Origin: Siphonodentalium dalli
Taxonomy: Eukaryota > Mollusca > Scaphopoda > Gadilida > Siphonodentaliidae
Assembly (NCBI GenBank): GCA_032622095.1
Contig: CP136061.1
Coordinates: 55,191,762 to 55,255,761, forward strand
DNA length: 64,000 bases
Direction: 5' to 3'
In this document: positions 6,445 through 12,400 of the stretch, piece after piece
Layout of the letters: each line of letters begins with the position of its first letter
Numbering within the stretch: the first letter of the stretch is position 1
Translations under genes and position numbers: made by a program
The notes under the pieces: model-generated
What the model saw: the letters and a program-made list of their open reading frames with translations, nothing else
The model's database searches: none
What the model was told of the DNA's origin: nothing

Positions 6445-9400
6445 CTACAAGGTTAAAAAATTTACCAATTGTTTGGAGCTGGTACTTAGGGGAGACTTGT
6501 TGCCAGCTATCTTCTTCGTGCTGCTTGGATCTTTCTTCACTTCACTGGATGTTTCCTAAAAAATAAAATATCAAAATGAAGATTTTAACTAATTTTGTCG
6601 ATATTTTGTTGAAAATGTACTTTGTTAAAAATATTTTGTCGTACATCTGAGATAGTTCCTGTTTGTCGGCATAACCAGTGAGAGCTTTCCGATGAATGGC
6701 AACATGCCATATTTCCGACTAAATCCTTAAAATTTACCTCTAATTCTGCTGTGGTTACACTGATTTTCAATGACCTGTTACTCTTGTTTAGTAACTCATG
6801 TTTCCAAGCTGTTCGTACTATTCTAGCCTGCAAATAGTGTGTCTGTCATTTGCAGAATGAGGTCCCCAGAGGATGAATTTAGTGATGATATCCCGCACCC
6901 TCTGGAGACCTCATTCTGCTTAGGTCTTATCTTCTGGAAAGCATTTATAGTCTCAAATTAATATTGTTTTTAGTTACTATTTCCCTTCTGGGAACTTTCT
7001 ATATCACCTGATTCGTAGAAGATAAAGTGCATAATCGAGGTGACTAATGTGTGATATCACCAGCTTCAACTGGGGAACTTCAATCTAATCCTAGGTCTCT
7101 AATAGTAGTTGAGGCCTCAGCAGAATGAGGTTCCCAGGGGGTGATTGGTGAATTTGGTAATGCCAGCCCACCGGGCGGGATAGCATAACTAAATTCCCCC
7201 TCTGAGGACCTCATTCTGCAAATGTGAGACACACCATATTCAAGCTCGTTACTATTATTATTCTTGTTTACTACTTACTGGCTCTTCTGATGCAGATACA
7301 GGACCATTGACTGACGTTGCTGATGCCACATCGATGACGACGACGTCCGTCATGCTTTCACTGGTTGAGTCAGATATCTCCCCGTTTATTGCACTCGTTT
7401 CAGTTTGATCATTATTCAGCTCTGTTATTTTTAGGTCCTGCCAAGCTTTCATCATCTCTAGGACATTGGTGGGCTGTCCCGTGGACTCACCCTGAATAAA
7501 ATCACTTAATCAATGAAAGGAATGAAGGAAAGCATGGATGAATGAATACATGAATTACTGAATTCATCATCTCTAGGGCTTGTTATGTTGCTTTGAGGAC
7601 TCACTACACGATTGAATGAATTCATTATCTATGGGACTTGTTAGGTTGCTTTGTGAACTCACTACACGATTGAATGAATTCATCATCTATGGGACTTGTT
7701 AGGTTGCTTTGCGGACTCACTACATGATTGAATGAATTCATTATCTATGGGACTTGTTAGGTTGCTTTGAGGACTCACTACACGATTGAATGAATTCATC
7801 ATCTATGGTACTTGTTAGGTTGCTTTGCGAACTCACTACATGATTGAATGAATTCATTATCTATGGGACTTGTTAGGTTGCTTTGCAGACTCACTTCACG
7901 ATGGAATGAATTCATTATTTATGGGACTTGTTAGGTTGCTTTGCGAACTCACTACACGATGGAATGAATTCATCATCTATGGGACTTGTTAGGTTGCTTT
8001 GCGGACTCACTACACGATGGAATGAATTCATTATCTATGGGACTTGTTAGGTTGCTTTGCGAACTCACTACACGATGGAATGAATTCATCATCTATGGGA
8101 CTTGTTAGGTTGCTTTGTGAACTCACTACAGGATTGAATGAATTCATCATCTATGGTACTTGTTAGGTTGCTTTGCGGACTCACTACACGATTGAATGAA
8201 TTCATTATCTATGGTACTTGTTAGGTTGCTTTGAGGACTCACTACATGATGGAATGAATTCATTATCTATGGGACTTGTCAGGTTGCTTTGCGGACTCAC
8301 TACATGATTGAATGAATTCATCATCTATGGGACTTGTCAGGTTGCTTTGCGGACTCACTACATGATTGAATGAATTCATCATCTATGCTACTTGTTAGGT
8401 TGCTTTGCGGACTCACTACATGATTGAATGAATTCATCATCTATGGGACTTGTCAGGTTGCTTTGCGGACTCACTACATGATTGAATGAATTCATTATCT
8501 ATGAGACTTGTTAGGTTGCTTTGCGGACTCACTACATGATTGAATGAATTCATCATCTATGGGACTTGTTAGGTTGCTTTGTGAACTCACTACACAATTG
8601 AATGAATTCATCATCTATGGGACTTGTTAGGTTGCTTTGCGGACTCACTACATGATTGAATGAATTCATCATCTATGGGACTTGTTAGGTTGCTTTGCGG
8701 ACTCACTACATGATTGAATGAATTCATTATCTATGGGACTTGTCAGGTTGCTTTGCGAACTCACTACACAATTGAATGAATTCATCATCTATGGTGGGAC
8801 TTGTTAGGTTGCTTTGCGGACTCACTACATGATTGAATGAATTCATCATATGTGGAGCTTGTTAGGTTGCTTTGCGGACTCACTACACGATTGAATGAAT
8901 TCATCATCTATGGGACTTGTTAGGTTGCTTTGCGGACTCACTACACGATTGAATGAATTCATCATATGTGGAGCTCGTTAGGTTGCTTTGCGGACTCACT
9001 ACACGATTGAATGAATTCATCATCTATGGGACTTGTTAGGTTGCTTTGCGGACTCACTACACGATTGAATGAATTCATCATATGTGGAGCTTGTTAGGTT
9101 GCTTTGCGGACTCACTACACAATTGAATGAATTCATCATCTATGGGACTTGTTAGGTTGCTTTGCGGACTCACTAAACAATTGAATGAATTCATCATATG
9201 TGGAGCTTGTTAGGTTGCTTTTGCGGACTCACTACACACTTGAATGAATTCATCATCTATGGGACTTGTTAGGTTGCTTTGCGGACTCACTACACAATTG
9301 AATGAATTCATCATCTATGGGACTTGTTAGGTTGCTTTGCGGACTCACTAAACAATTGAATGAATTCATCATATGTGGAGCTTGTTAGGTTGCTTTGCGG

Positions 9401-12400
9401 ACTCACTACACGATTGAATGAATTCATCATCTATGGGACTTGTTAGGTTGCTTTGCGGACTCACTACACGATTGAATGAATTCATCATCTATGGGACTTG
9501 TTAGGTTGCTTTGCGGACTCACTAAACAATTGAATGAATTCATCATATGTGGAGCTTGTTAGGTTGCTTTGCGGACTCACTACACGATTGAATGAATTCA
9601 TCATCTATGGGACTTGTTAGGTTGCTTTGCGGACTCACAACACGATTGAATGAATTCATCATATGTGGAGCTTGTTAGGTTGCTTTGCGGACTCACTACA
9701 CAATTGAATGAATTCATCATCTATGGGACTTGTTAGGTTGCTTTGCGGACTCACTAAACAATTGAATGAATTCATCATATGTGGAGCTTGTTAGGTTGCT
9801 TTGCGGACTCACTACACACTTGAATGAATTCATCATCTATGGGACTTGTTAGGTTGCTTTGCGGACTCACTACACAATTGAATGAATTCATCATATGTGG
9901 AGCTCGTTAGGTTGCTTTGCGGACTCACTACACGATTGAATGAATTCATCATCTATGGGACTTGTTAGGTTGCTTTGCGGACTCACTACACGATTGAATG
10001 AATTCATCATATGTGGAGCTTGTTAGGTTGCTTTGCGGACTCACTACACAATTGAATGAATTCATCATCTATGGGACTTGTTAGGTTGCTTTGCGGACTC
10101 ACTAAACAATTGAATGAATTCATCATATGTGGAGCTTGTTAGGTTGCTTTGCGGACTCACTACACACTTGAATGAATTCATCATCTATGGGACTTGTTAG
10201 GTTGCTTTGCGGACTCACTAAACAATTGAATGAATTCATCATATGTGGAGCTTGTTAGGTTGCTTTGCGGACTCACTACACACTTGAATGAATTCATCAT
10301 CTATGGGACTTGTTAGGTTGCTTTGTGGACTCACTACACAATTGAATGAATTCATCATATGTGGAGCTTGTTAGGTTGCTTTGCGGACTCACTACACAAT
10401 TGAATGAATTCATCATCTATGGGACTTGTTGGGTTGCTTTGTGGACTCACTACACAAGTAAATTGAACAAATGAATTTTGGATGGCCAAAGTCAATCCAG
10501 TACAGGCCTAAAAAATCTACCCCACTGTCACCAAATTCATCCGGGACTTCATTCTGCATGGCCTCATCTGCTATGGGAGACCGAGACACAAGTTCCCAGA
10601 TGATGAAGATTATACATTGTTTCATCTGCCAATTTGGGGATATCGCGAAACTAAACTAAAACAGAATAAGAAACTTGCTACAGAGTTTCTAAAGAAACAA
10701 CATAATTATTAATTTGATATTAAAGATACTTTCCAGAGAAATGAGGCCTAAGCAGAATGGGGTCCCCAGAGTGTGAATTAAGTGATGCTAGCCCGCTCTG
10801 TGGGGTAGCGTCACTAAATTCATCCTCTGTCCAGCACCATATATTGGAGCCTGATCCAGTGTTATCAGTATACCATTTTTTTTCTTGAAAAATTGCAGTT
10901 TGTTGCAATTTCAAGCAGTTCAATCTTTCAGCAACAGAGTTGAAGTTATGAATTTTGACACTTACTGTAATCCAGGGGTGGTTTAACATTTCACTTGCTG
11001 TCACTCTGTGGGCAGGGTCAACCTTGAGCAAGCCCTGAATACACTGTTTAGCTACAAATTAATAAAACAAAATATTACCAAATAAAATCAGGTTTCTAAT
11101 TAGTGATGTACCGATTATCGGTATCGGCTATCGGATCGGGCCGATATATGTGGTATCGGCAAGATATCGGTATCAGCAAAATTTAGTCTCCCGACCGATA
11201 TCGTCAACCGATACATGTCGCGTCCTTTGTGAACATTGTTACACCAATTCGGACTTTAATATTAAATAAATGACAGGAATTTCCAGAAAAAATAGCGACT
11301 ATTTTACCCACGGCTCAGCCCTCCATCACATACGGTGATATACCATGATGACAACATCGACAGGAGACTGCTGGTACACTCATGACCCAAATAAACATTT
11401 CAAAAGGTACCGTAGTTCCGTACGCTTAATAATTAAAGTTAAAACATAAACTGTATATAATTAAAATTACTTGCGAGTGCCGAGTAGCACATGTTGAAAG
11501 TGAATAACTGACACCCCTGGCATTAGCGTCAGAATGGAATCTTCCTATGACTGAATCAGACTAATGTACCGGTATCATTTAGTGATGTATTCATGGGGGT
11601 GTGGAATTAATTCCATGGCACATGCGACAGTAAGTTGTCACATTGTTATTATCTTCCCAAGGCGGGTACCGGGCGGCAAGATCAAACGTTTATTTGCATG
11701 CATTTTATGTCTTCGAGTAGGAATCACTAATATGCCACGTGTTGACAGATGACACAGTAAACTAACGAGAGGCCGATCACGATCGGCAGATGTTTAACCC
11801 ATCCCTTGGCGATAGTAAATTGTTATAATCAGAATCATAATCTTTTAATGTTGAATTATAGAGTATACTGTTATGATCTAAAGTAGTATATGGCAAATGT
11901 ACATAATAACCAGTAATAACACAAATTATTGGAATGTATGAGTCAATATAGAAGGGTTAATATAACATCTAAACTCTAGAGCCTGTCACCACTATCATAG
12001 TGTAAGCAGTTCTATTCATGTTGTTGCAAATTGCCATGTGAGATATCAAAATAATATAATTATTTATTTAATGGAAAAGGTTAAAAGACATGGAATGGGT
12101 AAAAGGGGTTAAATCACCTATCTCTGCCCTGTTTGATCCAATGTAGTCCCATCATCCAAGGACTTAGAGAGCTCCATTGGTCTAGTTAAATAAATTCACA
12201 TCAAGTTGTGGTTAATAAGATAGCTAAATCAATTTATCCAATAATTCACTAATTTGTGTCTCTTATACAGAGGGAACATATGAGGGCTATAAATAACTCT
12301 CAATAAACCATGTCTTTTTATCTCTCTCACAGAGAAGCTGTGAGGCTGAGGTATTCATTAATTGTAAGTTACTTGGGTTATAATTGGATAATTCTTAGTT

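What the first reader, a model, noticed from the sequence alone, without database searches (positions are those of the whole stretch)
7441..10455. A 50-copy minisatellite that seems to have grown out of the kinase exon 9 splice site
Seen: on the - strand exon 9 reads TTATTCAG/GGTGAGTCC ... CCTAGAGATGATGAA. The first 58-bp unit (7561) reads TTCATTCAATCGTGTAGTGAGTCC ... CCTAGAGATGATGAA, with almost the same spacing (20 against 19 bases) between the shared 8-mer and 15-mer. Later units have drifted (CCCATAGATGATGAA) but keep the TAG/TGAGTCC acceptor-like string. Inference: the boundary was duplicated and amplified upstream of the real acceptor, leaving about 50 decoy acceptors in intron 8. This could weaken exon 9 use or make splicing depend on array length.
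Basis: partly seen in the sequence, partly recalled or inferred. Interest (0 to 1): 0.78.

Follow-up and report, generated by a model that had tools for sequence, protein, structure and literature searches.

The report
Intron repeat copied from kinase exon
Fifty near-identical 58-letter repeats inside an intron of a kinase gene appear to have started as a copy of the first part of the next exon; similar, shorter arrays are known in lancelets, where they were reported not to disturb splicing.

Summary
The array is real: 50 units of about 58 bp at 7559-10455, filling 83% of intron 8 of an STK33-like kinase gene on the - strand. No other locus was found in the 2.2-Gb genome. The relation to exon 9 holds: the unit matches exon 9 bases 2-44 (7448-7490) at 32 of 42 columns plus one gap, and no window control scores as high (0 of 2628 for exon plus flank; 0 of 1706 for the exon part). 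The interpretation needs correcting. What was copied is coding sequence. Homology across the acceptor is not shown (91 of 1500 random flanks extend as well), and the units' TAG is not the inherited acceptor AG. As acceptors these TAGs are ordinary: 41% of background AGs score as well. Every unit does carry GTGAGT, a moderate donor-like site (top 4% of GTs), inherited from exon codons. Closest known kind: lancelet "mirage" repeats, reported not to disturb splicing (PMC3087553, PMC3902484; passages seen). Best reading: a locally born, homogenised, probably passive array. No RNA or related species could be examined.

The parts
7559..10455 (-). 58-bp minisatellite, 50 units, in intron 8 (sense strand is -)
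   Evidence: TRF; unit split; only locus found in the genome
7448..7490 (-). exon 9 bases 2-44: the presumed source of the repeat unit; contains GTGAGTCC and CCTAGAGATGATGAA
   Evidence: local alignments against controls; 32 of 42 columns plus one gap
7279..7491 (-). exon 9 of the STK33-like kinase gene (213 bp; first codons GGT GAG TCC)
   Evidence: junction strings and joined translation
7492..7493 (-). real exon 9 acceptor AG; not aligned with the units' AG
7492..10965 (-). intron 8, 3474 bp, of which the array is 2897 bp
10966..11051 (-). exon 8 of the kinase ([20 protein letters not shown])
7560..7617 (-). unit 1, the edge unit nearest exon 9, the only one with the exact 15-mer
8839..10405 (-). 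distal part of the array (units 23-49) in which two unit types mostly alternate (116-bp higher-order repeat)
   Evidence: identity 0.967 at lag 2 against 0.914 at lag 1

Best explanation
A stretch of about 43 bases from the 5' end of exon 9 of an STK33-like kinase gene was duplicated into the neighbouring end of intron 8, joined to about 15 further bases of uncertain origin, and amplified by slippage or unequal exchange into a 50-copy, 58-bp minisatellite. The interior has been homogenised and partly re-organised as a two-unit higher-order repeat, while the edge unit next to exon 9 keeps two exon-like bases that the array consensus has lost. The array is removed with the intron and is probably a passenger: its AGs are ordinary acceptors, and its inherited GTGAGT sites are moderate donors for which no strong acceptor lies within the array. 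Shown here: array, location, sequence relation, apparent single locus, site scores. Inferred: direction exon to array, amplification mechanism, lack of effect on splicing.
For: Exon 9 part above all 1706 non-overlapping control windows, exon plus flank above all 2628 overlapping windows, 0 of 3000 random 58-mers against the exon part. The other flank of the array (10456-10593) shows nothing comparable (70 against 162; 12 against 23). Site pattern exon / unit 1 / consensus over 42 columns: 30 all the same, 7 unit 1 = consensus, 2 exon = unit 1, 2 exon = consensus, 1 all different, which fits unit 1 as an early branch. No second array or second exon 9 found in the genome. Direction: exon 9 continues the STK33 reading frame (8vf6, E 7.7e-79, whose chain ends ..WLTG against WIT|G across the exon 8/9 junction), and the copied codons (TNVLEMMK) resemble the STK33 C-terminal flank as I recall it, so the exon should be older than the array. 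Precedent: lancelet mirages (PMC3087553, PMC3902484).
Against: Identity is only 32 of 42 plus a gap, and the exon-only score exceeds the best control narrowly. Units nearer the exon are not closer to it overall (Spearman 0.14, p 0.34), and unit 1 is no closer than the consensus (32 each). 11 of 2658 random pairs share a word of 15 or more. Under one scoring scheme 2 of 3000 random 58-mers reach the region's score. The 15 remaining bases of the unit and the 68 bases between exon and array are not clearly related to the unit (91 of 1500; 35 and 92 of 1808). Conservation of exon 9 beyond one residue rests on recall. No transcript data.
Confidence: 0.7

Rival explanations
1. Chance resemblance: the minisatellite arose from other, now unrecognisable intron sequence, and the 15-mer plus 8-mer at like spacing is coincidence in an AT-rich region with many GAATGA-like words.
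For: Exon-only margin is small (110 against 107); 11 of 2658 random pairs share 15 or more bases; 2 of 3000 random 58-mers reach the region's score in one scheme; no gradient along the array.
Against: 0 of 1706 and 0 of 2628 controls, 0 to 3 of 2000 shuffles; 0 of 3000 random 58-mers against the exon part; the match spans 43 columns with a single gap and lies next to the array.
Confidence: 0.15
2. One reading: the acceptor boundary itself was amplified, leaving about 50 decoy acceptors that weaken exon 9 use or make splicing depend on array length.
For: AG directly before TGAGT in 49 of 50 units; CTAAC, a branch-point-like word (recalled), 44 times in the array; the real exon 9 acceptor is itself one of the two weakest of eight (3.0).
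Against: Units lack a pyrimidine tract; median score -0.4, reached by 2613 of 6296 background AGs; AGs outside the array in the same intron score up to 7.9. The unit AG is not homologous to the acceptor AG, and extension past the boundary is not significant. Lancelet mirages are reported not to interfere (PMC3087553, PMC3902484).
Confidence: 0.06
3. The array acts through its donor-like GTGAGT sites: 50 copies of a U1-binding hexamer in one intron compete with, or buffer, the exon 8 donor.
For: GTGAGT in 50 of 50 units and 0 in the rest of intron 8, against 22 in the remaining window on both strands. Median donor score 5.9, reached by 279 of 6588 background GTs; exon 6 of the same gene uses GCT/GTGAGT (6.4) and exon 8 uses ACA/GTAAGT (6.6); the source copy inside exon 9 scores 10.6. 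Human IFI6 minisatellite units serve as splice donors (PMC4526556, passages citing Turri 1995).
Against: The median unit scores below the weakest of eight real donors and lacks the -1 G. The GTGAGT columns are invariant but so are 38 of 58 columns, with longer invariant runs elsewhere, so there is no sign of special conservation.
Confidence: 0.06
4. The array is the core of a dispersed element (Helitron-like or foldback) that landed in the intron.
For: Foldback elements of an abundant family lie on both sides of the array.
Against: The unit was found only at this locus, and the abundant foldback family shares no evident sequence with it.
Confidence: 0.03

Closest known systems
'Mirage' minisatellites of lancelet genes: Adh3, globins BflGb6 and BflGb9, TnC, PGBD5 (PMC3087553 and PMC3902484, passages seen; original Adh paper not held)
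   Same: Tandem repeats at an intron-exon border, units carrying the 5' part of the downstream exon (BflGb6), AG/GT signals in many units, homogenised interior with distinct edge units.
   Different: 50 copies here against 6 and 3 in the two BflGb6 haplotypes; exon part diverged to about 75%; homology across the acceptor itself not shown; organism unnamed.
Human IFI6 (6-16) minisatellite with multiple donor sites (PMC4526556, passages; Turri 1995 seen only as a reference)
   Same: Intragenic minisatellite whose units carry donor-like sites.
   Different: There two downstream repeat units are used as donors; here use is unknown and the sites score lower than real donors of the gene.
TERT intron 6 VNTR6-1 (PMC11830802, search listing and start of abstract only)
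   Same: Large intronic minisatellite (38-bp unit, 24 to 66.5 copies); title reports genetic regulation of TERT splicing.
   Different: No exon-derived unit was mentioned in what I saw; length variation is not known here.
Intron gain by tandem duplication (PMC4974935, search listing only; PMC2812944, passages)
   Same: Tandem duplication of coding sequence that carries splice-like strings.
   Different: Here the copies lie inside an existing intron and no new intron is seen.

Membership tests
Mirage minisatellite (lancelet type) | tandem array adjoining an intron-exon border | tested here: met
   array edge at 7559, exon 9 begins at 7491, 68 bases apart
Mirage minisatellite (lancelet type) | unit contains sequence of the adjoining exon | tested here: met
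   0 of 1706 controls reach the exon-part score; 32 of 42 columns plus one gap
Mirage minisatellite (lancelet type) | unit spans the border, with the intron side and the splice signal | tested here: inconclusive
   91 of 1500 random flanks extend as well; the AG in the unit is shifted relative to the acceptor
Mirage minisatellite (lancelet type) | homogenised interior, edge units left out | tested here: met
   two-unit higher-order repeat in units 23-49; edge unit 1 alone has the exact 15-mer
Mirage minisatellite (lancelet type) | length instability between haplotypes | not testable with these tools
   one assembly only
Mirage minisatellite (lancelet type) | regular splicing not disturbed | not testable with these tools
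   no RNA data
STK33 kinase (host gene) | best match among solved kinases over the kinase domain | tested here: met
   8vf6 STK33 E 7.7e-79; next distinct sequence 4.6e-55; Pfam Pkinase 5e-68
Array of functional decoy acceptors | units score like real acceptors | tested here: not met
   median -0.4 against 2.6 to 10.8 for eight real acceptors; one of 49 exceeds the real exon 9 site (recalled matrix)

The most novel reading that the evidence does not exclude
A coding exon that starts with a strong donor-like string (AGG/GTGAGT, one base after its own acceptor) seeded an intronic array of 50 U1-binding hexamers, and the array's copy number now tunes how exon 8 is joined to exon 9 of an STK33-like kinase, for instance by competing with the exon 8 donor or by producing array-derived pseudo-exons in some alleles.
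Probability: 0.06. Interest if true: 0.65.

Novelty: new member of a known kind. Interest (0 to 1): 0.36.

Why it matters
It is a well-marked case of an intronic minisatellite whose birthplace can still be read, next to the exon it came from. It extends the lancelet mirage pattern to a much longer array and shows that what such arrays inherit may be donor-like strings from coding sequence and not the acceptor. If splicing does depend on array length, it would give a natural length-tuned splicing switch; present evidence does not favour that.

Tried and rejected
Whole acceptor boundary as the source: anchored extension not significant. A decayed unit between exon and array: the spacing of 118 bases is near two periods, but the intron part alone is reached by 35 and 92 of 1808 controls in two schemes; not accepted. 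Gradient of similarity toward the exon: none (Spearman 0.14, p 0.34). RNA structure of two units (9594-9709): z -0.13, no special fold. Mobile element core: unit found at one locus only. Special conservation of splice-like columns: not seen, 38 of 58 columns are invariant in the 47 full-length units. Literature: no paper with STK33 and minisatellite, none with minisatellite, intron-exon boundary and mollusc, none with the phrase mirage minisatellites; these searches cover only the held open-licence library. Pfam on stop-free stretches of exon 8 and exon 9 alone found nothing.

The splice matrices are my recollection of the general animal consensus, not fitted to this organism; under them several AGs of intron 8 outside the array score above the real exon 9 acceptor, which shows their limits.

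Full report
Array. TRF gives 7559-10455, 58-bp period, 49.9 copies, 91% matches. Fifty units can be cut at GAATTCAT; 47 are exactly 58 bp. A 340-bp piece of the array found only this locus in the 2.2-Gb genome (14 matches, all inside the array's interval), and an exact 24-letter unit pattern occurs 29 times forward and 0 times reverse, all inside the array. Both searches warn that they can miss common or weak matches.

Host gene. Motifs on the - strand gave kinase exons, and junctions were set by frame and GT/AG. Eight exons (numbered 2 to 9) were joined; exon 1 with the glycine loop lies near 29.2-29.0 kb and was not included. The joined kinase region is closest to human STK33 among solved structures (8vf6, E 7.7e-79, next 4.6e-55; that query held one extra glycine from a hand join). 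Pfam gives Pkinase at 5e-68. Intron 8 is 10965-7492 (3474 bp) and exon 9 is 7491-7279. No second copy of exon 9 was found in the genome; the next matches had E 4.7 and 8.8.

Relation to exon 9. The unit aligns with exon 9 bases 2-44 (7448-7490) at 32 of 42 columns plus one gap, the same for unit 1 and for the consensus. Exon plus flank (7421-7558) scores above all of 2628 overlapping control windows for three schemes and three queries, and 0 to 3 of 2000 dinucleotide shuffles reach it. The exon part alone beats 1706 non-overlapping windows, narrowly (110 against 107; 20 against 18; Gumbel p 0.0027 and 0.00008). Random 58-mers: 0 and 2 of 3000 reach the whole region's score in two schemes, 0 and 0 of 3000 the exon part's. 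The array's other flank and the reversed unit show nothing of the kind. Unit 1 shares an exact 15-mer with exon 9, while its best exact match in the rest of the window is 12 on either strand; but 11 of 2658 random pairs of pieces share 15 or more bases, because the window is rich in repeats.

Where the homology ends. Extending from GTGAGT into the intron gives 31, reached by 91 of 1500 random flanks and 97 of 1500 shuffles. The 67 bases from the acceptor AG to the array (7492-7558) taken alone are not clearly related to the unit (35 and 92 of 1808 controls). In the GTGAGT-anchored register the unit AG ends on the G that corresponds to exon base 2, so it is not the inherited acceptor AG (sequence). 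What was copied is thus coding sequence.

Direction. Exon 9 is in frame with exon 8; the solved STK33 chain ends WLTG where this gene reads WIT|G across the junction. The copied codons TNVLEMMK resemble the STK33 flank as I recall it; this part is recalled and not tested. An exon shared with other animals cannot have come from a one-locus array, so exon to array is the better direction (inference). The site pattern exon / unit 1 / consensus (30 the same, 7 unit 1 = consensus, 2 exon = unit 1, 2 exon = consensus, 1 all different) fits an early-branching edge unit, but there is no gradient of similarity along the array (Spearman 0.14, p 0.34).

Array evolution. Units 23-49 show lag-2 identity 0.967 against lag-1 0.914; units 1-21 show 0.937 and 0.934. 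Thirteen units of the CATATGTGGAGC type lie only in the far part, mostly alternating with the other type. This is the usual mark of unequal exchange of two-unit blocks (inference).

Splice-site potential (recalled consensus matrices). AG/TGAGT, 49 sites: range -1.5 to 3.4, median -0.4; real acceptors 2.6 to 10.8, exon 9's own 3.0; 2613 of 6296 background AGs reach the array median. One array site, at the far edge (10449), exceeds the real exon 9 acceptor, and so do several AGs of intron 8 outside the array. GTGAGT, 50 sites: 4.4 to 8.1, median 5.9; real donors 6.4 to 10.7; 279 of 6588 background GTs reach the median. The source copy in exon 9 (AGG/GTGAGT) scores 10.6. Intron 8 has no GTGAGT outside the array. 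So the array is a set of moderate donor-like sites with ordinary AGs, not a set of acceptors.

Known kinds. PMC3087553 (passages; [quoted passage not shown] PMC3902484 (passage) reports similar repeats in PGBD5 and says those of Adh and TnC do not generate aberrant mRNAs. The human IFI6 minisatellite supplies used donors (PMC4526556, passages), and TERT VNTR6-1 is linked to splicing (PMC11830802, listing). The present array fits the mirage kind on location, exon content and homogenisation; spanning of the splice site is inconclusive, and instability and splicing are untested.

Verdict. Origin from exon 9 is well supported but not proven. The decoy-acceptor reading is not supported; a donor-based effect is possible but unlikely on present evidence.

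Noticed in passing
7113-7232; similar foldback pieces near 6857-6925, 10550-10600 and 10740-10840: Short foldback elements with GCAGAATGAGGTCC-like ends; the 7113-7232 copy has many relatives in the genome (95 matches listed from 40 scored of 2687 first-look candidates).
   Followed up: partly
1101-2915: A 604-codon open stretch on the + strand matching Pfam DDE_Tnp_1_7 (E 4.9e-78), a transposase; I recall this Pfam family as piggyBac-like.
   Followed up: partly
35585-37558: A second large minisatellite, 26-bp unit AACCTGTCTACTATCAGAACAATCTT, in two blocks, upstream of the kinase exons found.
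   Followed up: no
12390-12977, 31774-32262 and 47039-47469: Tandem repeats of about 147-160 bp with related GGGCCATAACTC-like or GGGGCATAACTC-like units at three places in the window.
   Followed up: no
7484-7492: Exon 9 starts with a strong donor-like string (AGG/GTGAGT, score 10.6 under a recalled matrix) one base after its own acceptor.
   Followed up: partly
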